64,000 nucleotides of DNA from Simplicispira psychrophila DSM 11588. Its GTDB lineage: Bacteria > Pseudomonadota > Gammaproteobacteria > Burkholderiales > Burkholderiaceae_C. The DNA lies in NCBI RefSeq assembly GCF_000688255.1, contig NZ_JHYS01000003.1:186001-250000 (forward strand), written 5' to 3'. Of the stretch, positions 783 through 64,000 are shown piece after piece. Positions within the stretch are counted from its first letter, which is position 1; each line of letters starts with the position of its first letter. The notes beneath the pieces were generated by a model. The model ran no database searches. It had not been told where the DNA came from and saw only the letters and a program-made list of their open reading frames with translations. The position numbers and the translations under genes were made by a program.

Positions 783-1754
783 ATGGACGTGGATGCAAAA
801 AAATGGGTGCTGCTCGGCACGGGCGGGACGATTGCTGGCACGGCGGACGTAGCCAGTGACAACCTGCGCTATTGCGCGGCCCAGTTGTCGGTGCAGGCGC
901 TGTGGCAGGCGTTGCCAGGCGGGCCCGAAAGGAGGCCAGAGGGGGCCGGGCCGTGGGTGCTGGAGCAGGTGGCGCAGGTGGATAGCAAGGACATGGATTT
1001 TGCCGTGTGGGCAGTGCTGGCGCAGCGCTGCCAGCAGCACCTGGCTGACCCGGGGGTGGGCGGCATCGTGATTACGCATGGCACCGATACGCTGGAAGAG
1101 ACCGCCTGGTTTTTGCACTGTGTGTTGGACACGCACAAGCCGGTGGTGCTGACCTGTGCCATGCGTCCGGCTTCTGCCCTGGCGCCCGATGGGCCACAAA
1201 ACCTGCGCGATGCCGTGGCCGTGGCGATAGCGCCGGGCGCCTGCGGTGTGCTGGTGGTGTGCGCTGGCGAGATACACGGCGCGCGTGCGGTACAAAAAGT
1301 GCATCCGTACCGGCTCCATGCGTTTAGCTCAGGCGATGCGGGGCCGCTCGGCTGGGTAGAAGAGGGGCAGGTGCGTTTATCACAAAATTGGCCTCTAGCC
1401 CAATCCCATCATGCACTAGTAGCTATTAAAAAAATAGTAGATGGAGTGCCGTGGCCAAGGGTGGATATCGTCATGAACTACGCCGGTGCCAGTGCCGCCA
1501 TGGTGGCTGCGCTGGTGCACAGCGGTGTGCAGGGACTGGTGGTGGCAGCGACGGGTAACGGGACGCTGCATTACGCCTTGCAAGAAGCGTTGGAGCGGGC
1601 GCAGGCCGGCGGTGTGGCGGTGCGCGTGGCGACGCGCTGTCCACTGGGGCAGATGCTGCCGCACCCGGGCGACATGCTGCCCGATGCACAGGGTTTGAGT
1701 CCGGTGAAGGCGCGCGTGAGCTTGCTGCTGGAGTTGCTGGCGGCGCAGACGTAA
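783..1754 (+). CDS. Asparaginase family protein (cytosolic type)
   Basis: It likely hydrolyses L-asparagine to aspartate and ammonia. The first catalytic threonine motif TGGTIAG is at residues 13-19 from this ATG, and the second motif HGTDTLEE at about 99-106. No signal peptide is visible, which suggests a cytosolic enzyme. The start is uncertain: GTG at 759, ATG at 783, or GTG at 789. The AGGAG at 778-782 is best spaced for 789. Residues around 201-219 (QNWPLAQSHHALVAIKKIV) come from an in-frame copy of the interspersed repeat, just before the conserved PRVDIVMNYAG segment. A tightly annotated isoform (ansA or ansB) cannot be assigned from sequence alone. Confidence 0.88.
   Translation: MDVDAKKWVLLGTGGTIAGTADVASDNLRYCAAQLSVQALWQALPGGPERRPEGAGPWVLEQVAQVDSKDMDFAVWAVLAQRCQQHLADPGVGGIVITHGTDTLEETAWFLHCVLDTHKPVVLTCAMRPASALAPDGPQNLRDAVAVAIAPGACGVLVVCAGEIHGARAVQKVHPYRLHAFSSGDAGPLGWVEEGQVRLSQNWPLAQSHHALVAIKKIVDGVPWPRVDIVMNYAGASAAMVAALVHSGVQGLVVAATGNGTLHYALQEALERAQAGGVAVRVATRCPLGQMLPHPGDMLPDAQGLSPVKARVSLLLELLAAQT
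1383..1437. repeat. Interspersed palindromic element, in-frame copy in asparaginase gene
   Basis: The segment contains GCCTCTAGCCC followed by ACTAGTAGCTATTAAA, the two halves of the element seen between genes elsewhere in the window. It is read through in frame and adds about 18 residues to the asparaginase. Confidence 0.7.
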
Positions 1755-3642: not shown

Positions 3643-4683
3643 TCAGTGGGGGGATGATAGTGCGCACTGTAAGCGTGCATCGAGTGCGGCAAAGAAGCCT
3701 TCGCCCAACTGCAGTTGCAAAGGCACCGCCAGCGCATCGGGGTGCTGCGGCCACAGTTTGACAGCATCTTTTTCAGTACAAATCAGGGTGTATCCCTTAT
3801 TTGACGGGCGCTTCCAGCTATTAAAATCAAAGTGATCTGGCAGTGCCAGCGTCTCCACCAGCACCAATCCTTGGGCTTGCAGCAGGGTAAAAAAATCTTC
3901 GGGGCGGGCAATGGCGGCCAGTGCCAACAAAGGCGTGGCGTGCAAGCTGGCCAGTGGCACCCGGCGGCCATCGGCGCGCAGGGCAAAGTCGGCCAGCTGG
4001 CGTTGCAGGGCAAAACGTGGCGCACTACCGCCTTGGGGCGCGGGGCCAGCGTGCAGCACGATATCGACCGGGCGCGGCCAGGGTTCGCGCAACGGGCCGG
4101 CGGGCAGCAAAAATCCGTTGCCAACACCTTGGTCGTTGAAGACACATATTTCGATATCGCGCGCCAGTGCCCAATGCTGCAGACCATCGTCGCAGACGAT
4201 GACGTTGGTATCCGGGTATTGAGTGCGCAACAGGCGCGCCGCCGCGCTGCGCTGCGCGGCCACTACCACCGGCACTTGGCAACTGCGGGCGATCAGCGCC
4301 GGCTCGTCACCGACCATGCTGGGCGGGCTGTCCGGCAGCACCACACGGCTGTCGTGCGTGTTGCGGCCATAACCGCGCGAGACCACACCGGGGCGCCAGC
4401 CCTGCGCCTGCAGGTGCTGCACCACGGCCATCACCACTGGCGTTTTACCGGCACCGCCGGCGATGACATTGCCCACCACGATGACCGGTATGCCCGGGTG
4501 GCTGGATCTGAAGAGACCCGCCCGGTACAACGCCCGGCGCAGCGCCACCAGCAAGCCATAGCACAGCGACAGCGGCCACAGCGTCCAGGCCAGGGCGCCG
4601 CGCTGGCGCCACAGGCGCTGCCAAGTGCCGGCGGGAGCGCTGTCAGAAGGAGGCGGGGCGGGCGGCTGCGGCGCGGCAGCCAT
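3643..4683 (-). CDS. lpxK: Tetraacyldisaccharide 4'-kinase
   Basis: Phosphorylates the 4' position of tetraacyldisaccharide-1-phosphate to give lipid IVA at the inner membrane. The 346-residue protein has a Walker A motif [12 protein letters not shown] at about 71-82 and a preceding N-terminal membrane-associated helix (about 30-57). The TEKDAVK motif of the family is near the C-terminus. Just before it, a segment reading [18 protein letters not shown] matches a copy of the interspersed repeat read in frame. The gene follows exbD by six bases and precedes Trm112 and kdsB in one operon. Confidence 0.96.
3784..3832. repeat. Interspersed palindromic element, in-frame copy in lpxK
   Basis: Contains TGTATCCCTTATTTGACGGG followed by CGCTTCCAGCTATTAAAATC, a diverged copy of the element found between genes elsewhere. 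It adds residues to the loop before the conserved TEKDAVK motif of LpxK. Confidence 0.5.
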
Positions 4684-6078: not shown

Positions 6079-7407
6079 ATGTTTGAGCCACAAAACGATG
6101 GTCTGGCGCCACCTCTGCCGCACATCTGGGATGTGGGGGCGCTGTGCCACGCTGTGGCTGACCTGTTGCAGGCGCGCTTCAATCCGGTGGCGGTGCGCGG
6201 TGAGATCAGCGGCTTTTCGCGCGCTGCCAGCGGGCATTGCTACTTTTCCATCAAGGACGCCCACGGCCAGATCCGCTGCGCCATGTTCCGCCGCGCCGCC
6301 AGCCTGCTCGGATTCACGCCGCGCGATGGCGAATGGGTCGAGCTGCGCGGGCGCCTGGGTGTGTACGAGCAGCGCGGTGATCTGCAGCTGGTGGTCGAGA
6401 GCCTGCAGCGGGCCGGTCAGGGCGCCTTGTTTGAGCAGTTTTTACGCCTCAAGGCGCTGTTGGAGAAGGAAGGACTGTTTGACAGCGCCCGCAAACGCCC
6501 GCTGCCCGCCTTCCCGCGCGGCATTGGCCTAGTGACCTCGCTCGGTGCGGCGGCGCTGCACGACGTGGTGACAGCGCTGCGCCGGCGCTTGCCGCACATT
6601 CCCGTCGTGCTGGTGCCGGCACTGGTACAAGGCGCTGGCGCGGCACCTGCACTGGTTTCTGCGCTATCAAAACTGTATCTACTAGCGCAGGTGGAGAAAG
6701 GGCTGGAGGCTGATTTGACCCAAAATCCACCGATTGACGTCATCTTGCTGGTGCGCGGTGGCGGCTCCATCGAGGACTTGTGGGCGTTCAACGATGAGCA
6801 ACTGGCACGCACCATCGTGCAAAGCCCGGTGCCTTTGATCACCGGGGTGGGGCACGAGACCGACTTCACCATCGCCGACTTCTGCGCCGACCTGCGCGCG
6901 CCCACGCCCACGGCCGCTGCCGAACTGGTGGCGCCGCCGCGCGAGGTCTGGTTAGGCGCGCTCACCCAGCTGGTCGATCGCCTGCACCGGGGTACGCAGC
7001 GCCACCTCGACCGGCGCCAGCAGCGCCTGGACCAACTGGCTGCGCGCCTGGGACGACCCTCGGGCCTGCTGGCGCGCCAGCAGCAGCAACTGGCGCAATT
7101 GGCACAGCGTATGCGCCATGCCGTGCTGCTGAAACTGCAGCGCCTTGCGCACTCCCAGCAAGCGCTACAGGCCCATTGGCCCGCTGCATTGCAGCGTAAC
7201 TTGGCCCAGTACCAACAGCACCTGGAGCGCACTGCTCTGCGCCTGCAGCTGCTTGACCCGCGCTTGGTGCTGCAGCGCGGCTACGCCTTGCTCACCGATG
7301 CCCACGGCGGCGCCCTCACCAGTGTGCAGCAGGCCCGCGTGGGGGCGCCGCTGCGCGCCACGCTGGCCGATGGCACGCTGGAATTGACGGTGGTGGCGCG
7401 GCGTTGA
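6079..7407 (+). CDS. xseA: Exodeoxyribonuclease VII large subunit
   Basis: Forms exonuclease VII with XseB and degrades single-stranded DNA. The start chosen is ATG 6079 (MFEPQND), because residues before it are not family-like; this gives 442 residues. An N-terminal OB fold (about 25-110, VRGEISGFSRAASGHCYFSIKD) is followed by the catalytic core with VRGGGSIEDLWAFNDE and TGVGHETDFTIADFCAD. A long coiled-coil-like C-terminal half is rich in Gln, Arg and Leu. Residues about 193-214 (SKLYLLAQVEKGLEADLTQN) are an in-frame copy of the interspersed repeat, inserted before the conserved IDVILLVRGGGS strand. Confidence 0.96.
   Translation: MFEPQNDGLAPPLPHIWDVGALCHAVADLLQARFNPVAVRGEISGFSRAASGHCYFSIKDAHGQIRCAMFRRAASLLGFTPRDGEWVELRGRLGVYEQRGDLQLVVESLQRAGQGALFEQFLRLKALLEKEGLFDSARKRPLPAFPRGIGLVTSLGAAALHDVVTALRRRLPHIPVVLVPALVQGAGAAPALVSALSKLYLLAQVEKGLEADLTQNPPIDVILLVRGGGSIEDLWAFNDEQLARTIVQSPVPLITGVGHETDFTIADFCADLRAPTPTAAAELVAPPREVWLGALTQLVDRLHRGTQRHLDRRQQRLDQLAARLGRPSGLLARQQQQLAQLAQRMRHAVLLKLQRLAHSQQALQAHWPAALQRNLAQYQQHLERTALRLQLLDPRLVLQRGYALLTDAHGGALTSVQQARVGAPLRATLADGTLELTVVARR
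6654..6722. repeat. Interspersed palindromic element, in-frame copy in xseA
   Basis: Contains CTACTAGCGC, AAAGGGCTGGAGGCTGATTT and flanking CAAAA bases, matching the intergenic copies at 16553 and 21191. It adds about 20 residues to XseA between two conserved segments without breaking the frame. This is the clearest coding copy in the window. Confidence 0.8.
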
Positions 7408-16507: not shown

Positions 16508-16552
16508 ACGCGGTGTATCTCCCAAGCGAGCACTTTGAAAGCTGCGGTGCTC

Positions 16553-16608
16553 TGTTTTTAATAGCTACTAGCGCACGTATTGAAAGGGCTAGAGGCTGAT
16601 TTGACTTA
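16553..16608. repeat. Interspersed palindromic element (acyl-CoA dehydrogenase/mmsA gap)
   Basis: TAGCTACTAGCGCACGTATT followed by GAAAGGGCTAGAGGCTGATT, near-consensus. It sits next to the terminator at 16612. Confidence 0.85.
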
Positions 16609-16611
16609 AAT

Positions 16612-16644
16612 AAACGCCCCTTTCAGCCAAGAAAGGGGCGTTTT
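16612..16644 (-). terminator. Intrinsic terminator downstream of mmsA
   Basis: AAACGCCCCTTTC and GAAAGGGGCGTTTT form a 12-13 bp stem. It lies 15 bases past the mmsA stop, so some mmsA transcripts may end before the dehydrogenase gene. Confidence 0.75.
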
Positions 16645-20523: not shown

Positions 20524-20682
20524 GCGCTTTGCATCGCACCCTGAATGCCGGCCACGGGGTCAGAGCACGAGTTTTTTCCCGCAAGCGTCCAAAAATCGTG
20601 ATCTGACCCCATGGCCTACAGCAGTGTGGTCATTTAGAATCAAAATTGATAGCTGCTAGCGCACGTATCTAAAGGGCTAACG
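20524..20682. repeat. Composite repeat block, copy 1
   Basis: Shares long near-identical stretches with 21066-21230: the CTTTGCA-CGCACCCTGAAT lead, the inverted pair GGTCAGAGCACGAG and AAAATCGTGATCTGACC, GGCCTACAGC, and then an interspersed palindromic element. The inverted pair could fold into a long RNA or DNA hairpin. With the second copy it brackets a truncated antitoxin gene. Confidence 0.85.
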
Positions 20683-21065: not shown

Positions 21066-21253
21066 CGCGCTTTGCACCGCACCCTGAATTCCGGCCCCGA
21101 GGTCAGAGCACGAGTTTTTTGCCCGCAAGCGTCCAAAAATCGTGATCTGACCCCACGGCCTACAGCGGTGGCATTGCTTTTGGCCATTTAAACATCAAAA
21201 TTAATAGCTTCTAGCGCACGTATCTAAAGGGCTAGAGGCTATTTTGATAATCA
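21066..21253. repeat. Composite repeat block, copy 2
   Basis: Second copy of the block at 20524, with the same GGTCAGAGCACGAG / TCGTGATCTGACC inverted pair and a consensus interspersed element (AGCTTCTAGCGCACGTATCT followed by AAAGGGCTAGAGGCTATTTT) at 21204-21247. It ends against the zeta-like toxin gene. Confidence 0.88.
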
Positions 21254-21862
21254 AATAGCCGCAGTAGTGCCCAACATGTTTTGTACCCAAAGCGGCAGAG
21301 CGTCGGTCAGTACCGTGGTAGCTGAAACGGTGCGAATGGCCACCAAGCGTGGGCCGTCTTCGGTTTCATCTACCGCGTCATATAGATAAGCCACATCAGC
21401 CAAGCGCACCGCCTGCGCGAGGTTGTGCATGGTGCGCGGGTAGCGCGCCAAGATACGTTCGGGTGGCACGGGGTGGCCGCCTTCACGCACGCGCTGCGCT
21501 ACGCGGGTCAGCAATCGAGCGGGGTCGTCCAGCGCCACGATGTGCAGCGCGACGGTAAAGCCGTGGCTTTGCGCCTGCGCAATCAGAGCGAGTTTTGAGG
21601 GATGTGAGAACACTGTTTCGCTGGCGAAGGATATGCGTGCTGTCAGCAGTGCTGCGCGGCGGGCATCCGCCCAAGTGCGGGCGGTTTCGGAGCGCTCCTG
21701 CGCATCAGCAATGTGCTGGAGATGCGCGCTTTCGTGCAGGTCAGCATTCACGAATTCAAGCGGTGGCCCCAAGATGCCTTCGCGCACCAAGGCACGGTAC
21801 AGCGTGGATTTACCCGCGCCATTCGGGCCGGCGAGCAGGTGAAACCAGATGGGCGCAGCCAT
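21251..21862 (-). CDS. Zeta toxin family P-loop kinase
   Basis: A 203-residue protein with Walker A GPNGAGKST at about 12-20 (WFHLLAGPNGAGKSTLYRAL). This is the AAA/zeta-toxin fold that phosphorylates UDP-N-acetylglucosamine or similar metabolites. A conserved SFASETVFSHPSKL segment and RYPRTMHNL follow. Its start codon shares one base with the stop of the upstream antitoxin gene (TGATG), the usual antitoxin-first coupling. A poisoning role is inferred from family and arrangement. It might instead be a zeta-like kinase without toxicity. Confidence 0.85.
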   Translation of the reverse strand: MAAPIWFHLLAGPNGAGKSTLYRALVREGILGPPLEFVNADLHESAHLQHIADAQERSETARTWADARRAALLTARISFASETVFSHPSKLALIAQAQSHGFTVALHIVALDDPARLLTRVAQRVREGGHPVPPERILARYPRTMHNLAQAVRLADVAYLYDAVDETEDGPRLVAIRTVSATTVLTDALPLWVQNMLGTTAAI

Positions 21863-24055: not shown

Positions 24056-24083
24056 GTTGTTGTGACTGTCCCGGTCTGGGGTC

Positions 24084-24242
24084 CTATATCCGTCCCATCA
24101 GCAGCAAAATCACCAGGATCAGCACCACCAGTCCGATGCCGCCACTGGGCCCATAGCCCCATGATTTGCTATGGCCCCAACTGGGCAGAGCGCCCACCAG
24201 GATCAGGATCAGGATGATTAAAAGAATCAAGGACAGCGACAT
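24084..24242 (-). CDS. DUF3309 family small membrane protein, copy 1
   Basis: A 52-residue protein reading MSLSLILLIILILILVGALP, a WGY/GPSGG middle and a hydrophobic tail ending LLLMGRI. It matches the DUF3309 family: two hydrophobic segments separated by a Gly/Trp-rich hinge, probably in the inner membrane. Function is unknown. It is nearly identical in layout to the gene at 28122-28280, and the two share their upstream sequence. Confidence 0.85.
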   Translation of the reverse strand: MSLSLILLIILILILVGALPSWGHSKSWGYGPSGGIGLVVLILVILLLMGRI

Positions 24243-24372
24243 AAAAATTTCTCCCGGAATGTAATAAAGAGATTGTTGTTTGTCGGCATGTTTCGTTGCG
24301 TCAGGTTTGCGGTAGCTGAGCGTGTCATCGTTTGCTGATGCATCGAGTCGGACAGAGCGCCGTGCAGGAACT
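24243..24372. repeat. Upstream region of DUF3309 copy 1, duplicated at 28281-28405
   Basis: Shares GAGATTGTTG, CGTTTGCTGATGC and GTCGGACAG-GCGCCG with the region upstream of the second DUF3309 gene in the same order and spacing. The duplication therefore includes likely promoter sequence. The rest of the gap, 24373-24528, shows nothing I recognise. Confidence 0.75.
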
Positions 24373-27365: not shown

Positions 27366-28121
27366 TTTTTCTTATCAAAGTTGATGGATTGATAGCAAAC
27401 GCAGTAGATGGAGTGTCTGTTCTGCAAAATTTTTATTTTTATATCCAGTGGTGTCTGTAATTTGTAAAAGACCCATAGCTAAACGTAATTATTTTATTTT
27501 GTCAATATGAGTTTATTGTTACAAACATATTAATATGTAATGTATGGCTGTGGGATGGTAAATAATTGCCTGGACTCCAAGCGCTGTCCGCTGTTCAGGG
27601 CGCGTAAGGCCATAACAGGGTGAGGGATCAATTCCAAATATTTGGCACGTGGCTTCGCGTGGACATCCAACGGCCCCAGAGCGCGTGCACCGGGTGCAAG
27701 CCACGCTGAAGCCGGTGCAAGCAGTCGGCTTTGCTCCAGCCGCGCATACACAGCTGCTGGCGCTGGACAGCTTGTTGGCGGTAATGCGGGAATTTCTAGG
27801 CGTGTACAGCCATGAGTCAGGCGACTTGCGTATGGCGGTGAAATACCTGTCACAGACGGTGGCTGCGAGCTGCCGTAACGCACTGTTCAAACGTGAGAGG
27901 TCAGTGGATCAGTGAACGAATTTTTTATTCGTAGCTGTCCAAAAAACAGCAGCGCGCCCGCTGACTTGGAGCGGTGTTTATTTCTGAGCTGCTGAAAGGC
28001 CCCAATAGCTATTAAAAAATAATAGCTACAACCGCACGCCAGTATTGGGCTGTGGGCTTTTTTAATACTTTTTTTATCAGCGCTGGGCTGTAGTGCTCTA
28101 GTGATCAGCCCAGCGTGGCGC
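27366..28121. other. Long intergenic region with remnants
   Basis: 756 bases between the MBOAT gene and DUF3309 copy 2. The first 170 bases are AT-rich and probably hold the promoter of the acyltransferase genes. An open frame at 27649-27915 (88 residues, HTQLLALDSLLAVMREFLGVY) has no recognised family and may be a gene remnant. A degenerate copy of the inverted-pair repeat begins near 27897, and an interspersed element follows at 27999. Confidence 0.5.
27999..28066. repeat. Diverged interspersed palindromic element
   Basis: AATAGCTATTAAAAAATAAT, AGCTACAACCGCACG and the following TTGGGCTGTGGGCTTTTTTA resemble a longer, diverged form of the element, with T-rich flanks that might terminate transcription. 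Confidence 0.45.
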
Positions 28122-28280
28122 CTAGATTCGCCCCATCAGTAGCAAGACGACCAGGATCAGCACCACCAGGCCGACGCCACCGCTCGGCCCGTAGCCCCAG
28201 GAACGGCTATATCCCCAGCTGGGCAGGGCACCCACCAGAATCAGGATCAGGACGATCAAAAGAATCAAGGACAGTGACAT
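28122..28280 (-). CDS. DUF3309 family small membrane protein, copy 2
   Basis: A 52-residue protein reading MSLSLILLIVLILILVGALP and ending VVLLLMGRI, with a SWGYGPSGG hinge. It has the DUF3309 layout of two hydrophobic stretches around a Gly/Trp hinge. An AGGAGA ribosome site precedes the ATG. Paralogue of 24084-24242: same length, only a handful of differences. Such genes are often stress-linked, but the function is unknown. Confidence 0.87.
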   Translation of the reverse strand: MSLSLILLIVLILILVGALPSWGYSRSWGYGPSGGVGLVVLILVVLLLMGRI

Positions 28281-28405
28281 GGCAGTTTCTCCTGGGGTGA
28301 TGGAGAGATTGTTGGGCGCTGTCCGGCTAGTTTGCGACAGGGGGTAGCCGCTGAACGTGTCAGCGTTTGCTGATGCCCAGGGTCGGACAGGGCGCCGCGC
28401 ACGCC
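28281..28405. repeat. Upstream region of DUF3309 copy 2 (duplicate of 24243-24372)
   Basis: Carries the same ordered blocks as the first copy: GAGATTGTTG, GTGTCAGCGTTTGCTGATGC and GTCGGACAGGGCGCCG. The rest of the gap up to 28660 shows no gene, apart from the ribosome site CAGGAG for the DUF2789 gene. Confidence 0.75.
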
Positions 28406-43503: not shown

Positions 43504-46748
<3,245 letters not shown>

Positions 46749-62646: not shown

Positions 62647-64000
62647 ATGGCACTGATTGAAATAAAGGTTCCCGACATTGGCAGCACCGACGAGGTTTCG
62701 GTGATTGAAGTGTTGGTCAAGGTCGGCGACAGCATCAAGGCCGAACAATCGCTGATCACCGTCGAGTCCGACAAGGCCTCGATGGAGATCCCGTCCAGCC
62801 ACGCCGGCGTGGTGCAGGAGCTGCGCGTCCAGTTGGGCGACCAGGTCAAGGAGGGCAGCGTGGTGCTGGTGCTGCAAGCCGAAGGCGCTGCAGAATCGGC
62901 ACAAAATACAGCTCCAGCCCAATCTGTACCAGCGCCTTCAGCTATTAAAAATGAAGTGCCTGCGGCGCCACCAGCAGCGCCTGAAGCTGCCCCTGCAGCG
63001 GCCCCGGCCGCCGCCAGCGGCCCAATCGAACTGCGCGTGCCCGACATCGGTGACTTTAAGGACGTCTCCGTGATTGAAGTGCTGGTCAAAGCCGGCGATA
63101 CCGTCACGCTGGAGCAGTCACTGTTCACCATCGAGTCCGACAAGGCCTCGATGGAAATTCCTTCGCCCATGGCGGGTGTGATCCAGTCCTTGACGGTCAA
63201 GGTCGGTGACACCGTGAACATTGGTGATCTGGTCGGGCTGATTGAAGGCGTGGCTGCAGCTGCAGCACCGGTAGCAGCACCCGCTGCGGCGGCGATTCCA
63301 GCTCCTGCAGCTGCTCCTGCTGCAGCTGCGACGCCCACGGCAGCAGCAGCCAGCGCTGCACCGGCCACCACTGCTGTGCCGGCGCACAACCCGACAGCCG
63401 CCCCCACCGGCCAGTTGGCGCACGCTTCGCCCTCGGTGCGCAAATTTGCCCGTGAATTGGGCGTGCCGCTGACCGAAGTGCAGGGCAGTGGCCGCAAGGG
63501 CCGTATCACGCAGGAAGACGTGCAGTCGTTTACCCAATCGGTGATGCGCGGCACGTTGCAGACGGCAGCGCAACAGGCGGTGCAACCGAAAAGCGCAACA
63601 CCCGGTACGGGGACGGGCGCTGGCCTGGACTTGTTGCCCTGGCCCAAGGTCGATTTCGCCAAATTCGGTGCTATCGAACGCAAGGACCTGTCGCGCATCA
63701 AGAAAATCAGCGGCGCCAACCTGCACCGCAACTGGGTGATGATTCCGCACGTCACCAACAACGACGAAGCTGACATCACCGAGCTGGAGGCCTTCCGCGT
63801 CTCGACCAACAAGGACAACGAAAAGAGCGGCGCCAAGGTGACCATGCTGGCGTTTGTCATCAAAGCGGTGGTCGCAGCGCTGAAGAAATTCCCCGACTTC
63901 AACGCCAGCCTGGACGGCGATACGCTGGTCTATAAGCAGTATTTCAACATCGGTTTTGCTGCAGACACGCCCAACGGGCTGGTGGTGCCGGTGCTGAAAG
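62647..64000 (+). CDS. aceF: Pyruvate dehydrogenase E2 (dihydrolipoamide acetyltransferase), cut by the window end
   Basis: The frame runs open from ATG 62647 to the right edge, with 451 codons visible. Two lipoyl domains are present (about 1-75 and 118-195), each with the lipoylated Lys in ESDKASMEIPS. They are followed by an Ala/Pro-rich linker, a peripheral subunit-binding domain (ASPSVRKFARELGVPLTEVQ) and the start of the catalytic domain (RIKKISGANLHRNWVMIPHV). An in-frame interspersed repeat lies in the first linker. The C-terminal catalytic His motif is beyond the window. Confidence 0.97.
   Translation, partial: MALIEIKVPDIGSTDEVSVIEVLVKVGDSIKAEQSLITVESDKASMEIPSSHAGVVQELRVQLGDQVKEGSVVLVLQAEGAAESAQNTAPAQSVPAPSAIKNEVPAAPPAAPEAAPAAAPAAASGPIELRVPDIGDFKDVSVIEVLVKAGDTVTLEQSLFTIESDKASMEIPSPMAGVIQSLTVKVGDTVNIGDLVGLIEGVAAAAAPVAAPAAAAIPAPAAAPAAAATPTAAAASAAPATTAVPAHNPTAAPTGQLAHASPSVRKFARELGVPLTEVQGSGRKGRITQEDVQSFTQSVMRGTLQTAAQQAVQPKSATPGTGTGAGLDLLPWPKVDFAKFGAIERKDLSRIKKISGANLHRNWVMIPHVTNNDEADITELEAFRVSTNKDNEKSGAKVTMLAFVIKAVVAALKKFPDFNASLDGDTLVYKQYFNIGFAADTPNGLVVPVLK
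62904..62952. repeat. Interspersed palindromic element, in-frame copy in aceF linker
   Basis: AAAATACAGCTCCAGCCC, then CAGCGCCTTCAGCTATTAAA, a diverged copy read in frame as QNTAPAQSVPAPSAIKNEV within the flexible linker between the two lipoyl domains. Confidence 0.6.

What the first reader, a model, noticed from the sequence alone, without database searches (positions are those of the whole stretch)
6654..6722. An interspersed palindromic element is carried in frame inside conserved genes
Copies of the same short element that lies between genes (for example 16553, 21204, 22283) also occur inside xseA (6654), the asparaginase gene (1383), lpxK (3784), ligA (44690) and aceF (62904). In each the reading frame stays open and the extra residues fall in a loop or linker between conserved blocks. 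This resembles the rickettsial palindromic elements that can insert into coding sequence and survive as peptide. The xseA copy is clear; lpxK, ligA and aceF are diverged and weaker. I know no naming for such coding copies in this family of bacteria.
Basis: partly seen in the sequence, partly recalled or inferred. Interest (0 to 1): 0.75.

Follow-up and report, generated by a model that had tools for sequence, protein, structure and literature searches.

The report
Repeat family also inside conserved genes
A short hairpin-forming DNA repeat, scattered in hundreds of copies through this bacterium's genome, also sits inside protein-coding genes as part of the protein, in several of them without adding any length, so it seems to have replaced existing codons there rather than simply being inserted.

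Summary
The repeat is real and abundant. A profile trained only on 93 intergenic copies of the sample finds 158 copies (15 bits or more) in 864 kb, about 650 per genome by extrapolation; 27 lie at least 90% inside called genes. Seven genes examined carry the copy at the same site and strand in relatives, e.g. selO in 23 of 30 sequences. The insertion model is only partly right: xseA gains about 14 residues and an FAD/Fe-S gene 22, exactly one element, but selO, lpxK, asparaginase and a HAD phosphatase show no such gap, so there the repeat lies on ancestral codons. In one relative, selO carries 36 of 37 bases of the current intergenic consensus, which points to templated rewriting. Intergenic copies fold into hairpins and are enriched between convergent genes, like REP elements. 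Best filed as a new REP-like family with old, inherited, partly length-neutral coding copies. How it moves is unknown.

The parts
6662..6728 (+). element copy inside xseA, sense frame, encodes ALSKLYLLAQVEKGLEADLTQN
   Evidence: R1 50.5 bits; intergenic-only HMM 38.9 bits; alignments; structure model
6079..7407 (+). xseA, exonuclease VII large subunit (open frame from 5974)
   Evidence: Pfam Exonuc_VII_L spans the copy; gene call
1373..1439 (-). element copy inside the asparaginase gene, read antisense
   Evidence: R1 42.8 bits; HMM 36.8 bits; 7 of 30 sequences, own included, at least 15 bits
759..1754 (+). asparaginase gene
   Evidence: Pfam
3768..3834 (-). element copy inside lpxK, sense, length-neutral
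   Evidence: R1 18.9 bits; HMM 26.3; 12 of 30 sequences at least 15 bits; length difference 0 or 1
3643..4683 (-). lpxK
   Evidence: Pfam LpxK spans the copy
44663..44729 (-). partial element copy at the N-terminal end of ligA, read antisense
   Evidence: R1 17.3 bits; HMM 17.7; 16 of 30 sequences at least 15 bits
44655..46748 (+). ligA
   Evidence: Pfam
62892..62958 (-). partial element copy in an aceF linker, read antisense
   Evidence: R1 21.4 bits; HMM 25.3
62647..64000 (+). aceF (runs off the window)
   Evidence: Pfam
21191..21257 (+). intergenic copy, subfamily taken as young
   Evidence: R1 80.6 bits; folds -22.1 kcal/mol, z -5.83
16548..16614 (+). intergenic copy
   Evidence: 75.8 bits
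22273..22339 (+). intergenic copy
   Evidence: 72.9 bits
15266..15331 (-). intergenic copy
   Evidence: 68.9 bits
20637..20702 (+). intergenic copy, right end diverged
   Evidence: 53.8 bits
8229..8294 (+). intergenic copy, diverged
   Evidence: 36.9 bits
56438..56504 (-). intergenic copy, more symmetrical subfamily
   Evidence: 36.1 bits; folds -23.8 kcal/mol, z -7.57
28009..28075 (+). intergenic copy, diverged
   Evidence: 34.2 bits
30347..30413 (+). intergenic copy, more symmetrical subfamily
   Evidence: 28.0 bits

Best explanation
This is a REP-like family of dispersed imperfect palindromes of about 67 bp (A/T-rich ends, left arm ATAGCTnnnAGCGC, a loop of nearly fixed length, right arm GGGCTAGAGGC) in a Comamonadaceae-like genome (family inferred). 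Most copies lie between genes, mainly on 3' sides, where they probably act as transcribed hairpins, that is terminators or mRNA 3'-end elements (inferred). About one in six detected copies (27 of 158) lies inside a called gene. Shown: the coding copies are not chance; they use a few frames; seven examined sites are shared by relatives on the same strand; several cause no length change; lineages nearly free of the repeat also lack it at the coding sites compared. Inferred: coding copies arose before the genus radiated, partly by insertion (FAD/Fe-S gene, perhaps xseA with trimming) and partly by length-neutral, templated replacement of existing codons (selO, lpxK, asparaginase), with recombination between dispersed copies still rewriting them. 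How the element moves is not known.
For: Family and number. Beyond chance in genes: 29 hits of at least 15 bits in 777 CDS against a mean of 0.35 (maximum 2) in 20 synonymous-codon shuffles; a first-order Markov version of the sample gives 0. Sites at 15 bits or more, own sequence included, one strand per gene: selO 23 of 30, ligA 16 of 30, lpxK 12 of 30, asparaginase 7 of 30, FAD/Fe-S gene 13 of 30, type III res-like gene 8 of 11, xseA 7 of 110. Length-neutral: selO 29 of 29, lpxK 27 of 29 with no difference; against structures (-2; +2; 0). DNA-level retention: third-position A/T content of the site ranks 2 of 471, 3 of 324, 8 of 309 and 4 of 675 windows in selO, lpxK, asparaginase and ligA. 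Without selecting orthologues by score, third-position matches in selO follow intergenic conservation (Spearman 0.51, p 0.019). Rewriting: selO of relative G139 has 36 of 37 bases of the intergenic consensus, ours 28 of 37, and 8 of 8 differences between them are to the consensus in G139. Lineage dependence: R2 finds 125 and 76 copies in congeners G123 and G132 but 0 and 1 in congeners G121 and G124 (150 candidates scored in each); G121 (5 sites), G124 (5 sites) and G126 (4 sites, copies not counted) score 0 at every coding site compared. 3'-end role: gaps of 90-400 nt holding a copy are convergent 18 of 33, tandem 43 of 157, divergent 5 of 63; hairpins.
Against: The rewriting rests on one clear case, in a MAG that is 61% complete, and 7 differences in 4 codons also occur once elsewhere in that gene, so clustering alone is not proof; the exact match is. 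Codon conservation is not raised at the asparaginase site (rank 211 of 309) and only mildly at ligA (63 of 675); lpxK gives p 0.067. The FAD/Fe-S gene gains exactly one element, and gains of 5 to 14 residues at other sites fit insertion too. selO is under 15 bits in congeners G122, G128 and G133 as well, whose copy numbers were not counted. The pooled alignments show no RNA covariation. No mobilising enzyme was identified.
Confidence: 0.6

Rival explanations
1. Classical RPE/MITE-type insertion: each coding copy was added as a whole block by transposition in a permissive frame, then host genes trimmed it; the apparent absence of gaps reflects later deletion.
For: FAD/Fe-S (DUF3400) gene: 22 extra residues exactly here against seven of eight orthologues from other families and 18 against the eighth. 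XseA +14, CobU +13, Tmk +8, ThiL +7, HemD net +5. A probably intergenic copy is present in G139 and absent in our genome at one site (77 against 6 nt).
Against: Only the FAD gene reaches the 22 residues of one element among the sites compared. SelO and LpxK are length-neutral within two residues, and the HAD phosphatase at the copy itself, against relatives or distant structures; asparaginase differs by at most four in either direction. In LpxK the copy abuts a motif shared with other families. In the FAD gene the element-free congeners G121, G124 and G126 have loops of 22 residues without the repeat's letters.
Confidence: 0.28
2. The sequence is a recognised DNA signal (uptake signal or protein-binding site) that is driven or selected in place, so copies arise at permissive near-matches in genes without insertion; inverted pairs between genes double as terminators, as DUS pairs do in Neisseria.
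For: No gap at several sites; conserved genes; third positions match best where intergenic copies are most conserved (one search used orthologues chosen by score); intergenic inverted pairs at 3' ends. DUS in Neisseria are mostly intergenic, often inverted pairs, and arise by recombination (PMC2397512, passages seen). Verminephrobacter eiseniae, a Comamonadaceae member, is naturally competent with possibly specific uptake (PMC4212676, passages seen). ATAGCTNNNAGCGC occurs 12 times in CDS against 0.5 in shuffles.
Against: The conserved unit is about 67 bp with subfamily-specific loops, which implies copying of the whole unit. 10 of the 12 long half motifs lie in whole-element hits. The shorter half motif AGCTNNNAGCGC is 35 against 11.8, but control motif AGCANNNAGCGC is 49 against 19.0 and AGGTNNNAGCGC 11 against 10.0.
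Confidence: 0.1
3. Chance or codon-composition similarity in genes.
For: lpxK, ligA and aceF are individually weak with model R1 (E 0.13, 0.29, 0.036).
Against: Shuffle controls, presence at orthologous sites, A/T-rich third positions at the sites.
Confidence: 0.02

Closest known systems
REP elements of the GTAG and CGTC superfamilies (PMC3733652; abstract and passages seen)
   Same: Small palindromic repeats, many copies, mostly between convergent or same-direction genes, some inside genes including DNA repair genes (here xseA, ligA).
   Different: The consensus holds no GTAG or CGTC tag; about 67 bp instead of 20-40; among 10 transposase loci read, one has a strong copy nearby; coding copies are partly length-neutral and shared across a genus.
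Rickettsia palindromic elements, RPE (PMC3767692 passages; PMC2229807 section 5 part 1)
   Same: Palindromic repeat read in frame inside conserved proteins; related species carry it at the same place.
   Different: RPE are 100-150 bp and described as insertions; here several sites have no gap, and the host is a Comamonadaceae-like bacterium.
BRE, beta-proteobacterial repeat element (PMC3110155, section 14 read)
   Same: Dispersed repeat in Bordetella and Comamonadaceae, mostly intergenic, some copies entirely within coding sequences.
   Different: BRE in Bordetella is 75-91 bp with 69% G+C; matches here are about 67 bp with 28-57% G+C. The BRE letters were not compared.
Neisserial DNA uptake sequences, DUS (PMC2397512, passages seen)
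   Same: Interspersed motif in permissive places of the core genome, inverted pairs acting as terminators, arising by recombination and conserved in place.
   Different: DUS is a 10-12 nt motif; here the unit is the whole palindrome, and most half motifs in excess lie in whole-element hits.

Membership tests
RPE (rickettsial palindromic elements) | In-frame copies inside conserved protein genes | tested here: met
   20 of the 29 coding hits are in proteins named by Pfam, 1 has no family, 8 were not submitted
RPE (rickettsial palindromic elements) | Copies are insertions relative to orthologues lacking them | tested here: inconclusive
   FAD/Fe-S gene +22, xseA +14; none in selO, lpxK, HAD phosphatase; asparaginase within 4
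RPE (rickettsial palindromic elements) | Length 100-150 bp, Rickettsia or Wolbachia | tested here: not met
   About 67 bp; named XseA relatives include Acidovorax, Comamonas, Delftia and Extensimonas
RPE (rickettsial palindromic elements) | Encoded peptide is solvent exposed | tested here: inconclusive
   XseA model: helix end plus a low-confidence loop, pLDDT under 50 at residues 208-214; exposure not computed
REP (GTAG/CGTC superfamilies) | GTAG or CGTC tag at one end | tested here: not met
   Absent from the consensus on either strand (consensus printed; read by eye)
REP (GTAG/CGTC superfamilies) | Location mainly between convergent and same-direction genes | tested here: met
   18 of 33 convergent, 43 of 157 tandem, 5 of 63 divergent gaps of 90-400 nt
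REP (GTAG/CGTC superfamilies) | Hairpin-forming palindrome | tested here: met
   Three intergenic copies folded: z -5.83, -7.57, -2.38; no covariation in pooled alignments
REP (GTAG/CGTC superfamilies) | RAYT gene flanked by the repeat (GTAG type) | tested here: inconclusive
   Y1 transposase matches in 7 of 7 genomes incl. element-poor ones; of 10 such loci read, one has a strong copy; our own 245-codon match at C1:184849 was not read
BRE | 75-91 bp, about 69% G+C | tested here: not met
   About 67 bp, 28-57% G+C
DUS/USS uptake signal | Short motif in excess on its own inside genes | tested here: inconclusive
   ATAGCTNNNAGCGC 12 against 0.5, but 10 of 12 in whole-element hits; AGCTNNNAGCGC 35 against 11.8 with control motifs 49 against 19.0 and 11 against 10.0
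DUS/USS uptake signal | Sequence-specific DNA uptake in a competent host | not testable with these tools
   Needs transformation assays

The most novel reading that the evidence does not exclude
The repeat colonises genes by overwriting: short templated replacements copy its current sequence over codons that already resemble it, without adding length, and dispersed copies keep rewriting one another, so conserved enzymes such as SelO, LpxK and LigA carry patches whose DNA, and in part whose amino acids, follow the evolution of a selfish or signal repeat.
Probability: 0.33. Interest if true: 0.85.

Novelty: new variant of a known kind. Interest (0 to 1): 0.62.

Why it matters
Repeats inside genes are usually described as insertions. 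Here a family with several coding sites shared among 25 sampled congeners and some other genera lets insertion, replacement and loss be told apart by comparison. If replacement holds, it shows a way in which a repeat can rewrite conserved proteins without changing their length, a change that indel-based screens would miss, and it bears on how short repeats spread without a known transposase.

Tried and rejected
Rfam: no family reaches its gathering score in the window. RNA structure as the conserved feature: RNAalifold gives 5 pairs without compensatory change on 32 copies and none on 97, although single intergenic copies fold well. Plasmids: no match to one intergenic copy at E 1e-3; phages were not searched. 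In-frame gaps of 19-27 residues in LigA of some congeners looked like further insertions; by eye their peptides are unrelated loops. A RAYT partner: not specific to element-rich genomes. An uptake-type half motif: mostly explained by whole elements. Literature: searches for palindromic or interspersed repeats in Comamonadaceae or its genera returned no paper that I recognised as describing this element; BRE came closest. Most hits were judged from listings, and most subscription journals are not held.

Limits: genes were called by a script of mine (dicodon score), not by a standard gene finder. The 40 sampled stretches were set at fixed places on contigs C1-C21; contigs C22-C38 were not sampled. 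The HMM was trained on 93 intergenic copies of that same sample, so they are among the 158; the coding hits are not training copies. The count of 148 is a floor, because only 150 of 1463 candidates were scored. Counts include our own sequence, and the 110 XseA rows come from two searches and may hold the same species twice. Rows dropped: L221 (reading frame not continuous) (asparaginase lengths); our own genome and xseA, whose orthologues were chosen by score and so lean to the result; two gapped LpxK rows; one xseA row with a stop before the structure job. AceF orthologues and an XseA tree were not done. Organism names of solved structures are recalled.

Full report
What is there. The window holds a family of dispersed repeats. 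A covariance model (R1) from 32 of 44 distinct copies of this genome, not including those of xseA and asparaginase, finds 14 matches in the window at E up to 1; the last three are aceF, lpxK and ligA. The unit is about 67 bp: A/T-rich ends, left arm ATAGCTnnnAGCGC, a loop of nearly constant length, right arm GGGCTAGAGGC. Among 93 intergenic copies, anchored on AGCT, the CGC of the left arm is kept in 92 or 93 at each base and the G before it in 80. Two loop types recur: one with CACGTATCTAAA, taken as young because those copies are most alike, and a more symmetrical one with GCGCTTnnnnnnAAGCGC.

How many. Of 150 scored candidates in the whole genome, 148 pass E 0.01, out of 1463 first-look candidates. 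In 40 stretches of 20 kb plus the window (864 kb, 24% of the genome), an HMM trained on 93 intergenic copies of that sample finds 158 copies at 15 bits or more: 92 intergenic, 39 overlapping a gene end, 27 at least 90% inside a called gene. Scaled up this is about 658 per genome; a first-order Markov control gives none.

Are the coding copies real. In 777 called CDS (777 kb) the same HMM gives 29 hits of at least 15 bits. Twenty runs in which synonymous codons were exchanged within each gene give a mean of 0.35 and a maximum of 2; ten codon-order shuffles give none at 10 bits or more. The signal therefore lies in the DNA, beyond the peptide. xseA scores 38.9, asparaginase 36.8, lpxK 26.3, aceF 25.3 and ligA 17.7; no shuffle reached 25 bits. 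Pfam names 20 of the 29 proteins; one has no family and eight were not submitted. In most of the 20 the Pfam match runs across the copy or domains lie on both sides (read by eye); ligA and cobD have it at an end.

Frames. Of 29 coding hits 13 read the element in sense frame 1, 12 in antisense frame 2, 3 in sense frame 2 (xseA, selO, the metallo-beta-lactamase-fold gene) and 1 in sense frame 0 (lpxK). Among 93 intergenic copies the frame most often free of stops is antisense frame 0 (47 of 93), and no coding copy uses it. Stop codons alone therefore do not explain the choice; the peptide seems to matter.

Shared sites. With the same HMM, sequences reaching 15 bits at the same site and strand, our own included, are selO 23 of 30, ligA 16 of 30, lpxK 12 of 30, asparaginase 7 of 30, an FAD/Fe-S (DUF3400) gene 13 of 30, a type III res-like gene 8 of 11 and xseA 7 of 110 (sequences). 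On a SelO tree built without the site, the label needs four changes (shuffled mean 6.4; 12 of 500 shuffles as low): an old arrival with several losses fits.

Insertion or not. XseA has 14 more residues than a solved homologue at this loop (8txr), yet the left 20 nt of the copy cover codons of an ALxxLY helix end that genera without the copy also have. Across the site SelO has no length difference in 29 of 29 orthologues and LpxK none in 27 of 29 (1 residue in 2). Asparaginase has none in 18 of 28 and at most 4 either way. LigA has 2 more than 19 of 29, with a spread from -4 to +13. Against solved structures the net difference at the site is SelO -2, LpxK +2, HAD phosphatase 0 (a gap of 4 lies further on), HemD +5, ThiL +7, Tmk +8, CobU +13, and MetG is shorter in its linker. 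The FAD/Fe-S gene gains 22 residues, exactly one element, against seven of eight orthologues of other families and 18 against the eighth; element-free congeners have loops of 22 residues there without the repeat's letters. So arrival was an insertion in at least one gene as it seems, and was length-neutral in others.

DNA-level retention. Across about 30 genomes the site has among the highest third-position A/T content of each of four genes: rank 2 of 471 windows in selO, 3 of 324 in lpxK, 8 of 309 in asparaginase, 4 of 675 in ligA. Codon conservation ranks 9 of 471 and 7 of 324 in selO and lpxK, but 63 of 675 in ligA and 211 of 309 in asparaginase. Without selecting by score, third-position agreement with the intergenic consensus follows intergenic conservation in selO (29 orthologues, rho 0.51, p 0.019) and less surely in lpxK (27 of 29, rho 0.41, p 0.067). 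In asparaginase the loop differs between our genome, G139 and G127 while most of the arms stay.

A rewriting case. In relative G139 the selO site reads 36 of 37 bases of the young intergenic consensus; ours reads 28 of 37. The two differ at 8 bases, and at all 8 G139 has the consensus base; the peptide changes from LTD to HVS and A to E. A short templated replacement explains this better than point mutation. It is one case, in a MAG that is 61% complete.

Lineage dependence. Model R2 finds 125 and 76 copies at E 1e-5 in congeners G123 and G132, but 0 in G121, 1 in G124, 3 in G003, 1 in G006 and 0 in G001 and G007; 150 candidates per genome were scored. G121 at five coding sites, G124 at five and G126 at four score 0 with the HMM. 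Against a simple rule, selO is under 15 bits also in G122, G128 and G133, whose copies were not counted.

Likely work of the intergenic copies. Two copies of the window fold at -22.1 and -23.8 kcal/mol (z -5.83, -7.57), a third at z -2.38. The selO copy still folds (z -4.79); xseA (z -0.31) and asparaginase (z -1.17) do not. Gaps of 90-400 nt hold a copy in 18 of 33 convergent, 43 of 157 tandem and 5 of 63 divergent cases. That is the REP pattern (PMC3733652, passages seen) and suggests a 3'-end hairpin. It may also show only that copies in promoter regions are removed.

In XseA the model places the copy at the end of a helix (188-208) followed by a loop of low confidence before strand 221-226 (mean pLDDT 76.6, pTM 0.45).

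Compared with what is known. Repeats inside genes are known: RPE (PMC2229807 section 5 part 1, PMC3767692 passages), REP (PMC3733652) and BRE in Comamonadaceae and Bordetella (PMC3110155 section 14). This element lacks REP tags, is shorter than RPE and differs from BRE in G+C and length. I found no name for it in the searches listed. Short-patch replacement by heterologous DNA during transformation is known to me by recall only; of the papers returned I saw the listing and one reference entry.

Verdict. The copies are confirmed, the insertion reading is partly supported, and the thing is a new REP-like family with old, shared and partly length-neutral coding copies. The open question is how often replacement, rather than insertion, is its way into genes.

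Noticed in passing
L056 2528-2594, L063 2588-2654, L040 2597-2663: A second possible element site in the coiled-coil part of xseA in other genera, where the peptide of our genome (LLKLQRLA) already resembles the element's peptide; clear by eye in L056, weak elsewhere.
   Followed up: partly
own-genome sample L099-L138 and window: Words GGCAATG/CATTGCC are over-represented (434 against 156 expected; GCATTGCC 171 against 50), with no explanation.
   Followed up: no
L136 18352-18456, L135 18430-18535, L123 18714-18818: Pairs of copies overlap on opposite strands with altered right ends, as if a composite form of the repeat exists.
   Followed up: no
window 20524-20626 and 21067-21170; 24083-24257 and 28121-28295: Direct repeats of about 100 nt (91-95%) just upstream of the element copies at 20637 and 21191, and of 175 nt (82%) elsewhere.
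   Followed up: no
L298, L300, L294-L296, L303 (ligA orthologues): In-frame gaps of 19-27 residues near LigA residues 125 and 183 in different congeners; by eye not this element.
   Followed up: partly
G000 contig ends C5:1-186, C16:2-181: Fragments of a Y1 (IS200/IS605-type) transposase lie at contig ends of the window's own genome.
   Followed up: no
L351 11317-11383 (G139) against own contig C3: A probably intergenic copy is present in G139 and absent in our genome (77 against 6 nt), which shows gain or loss of a copy.
   Followed up: partly
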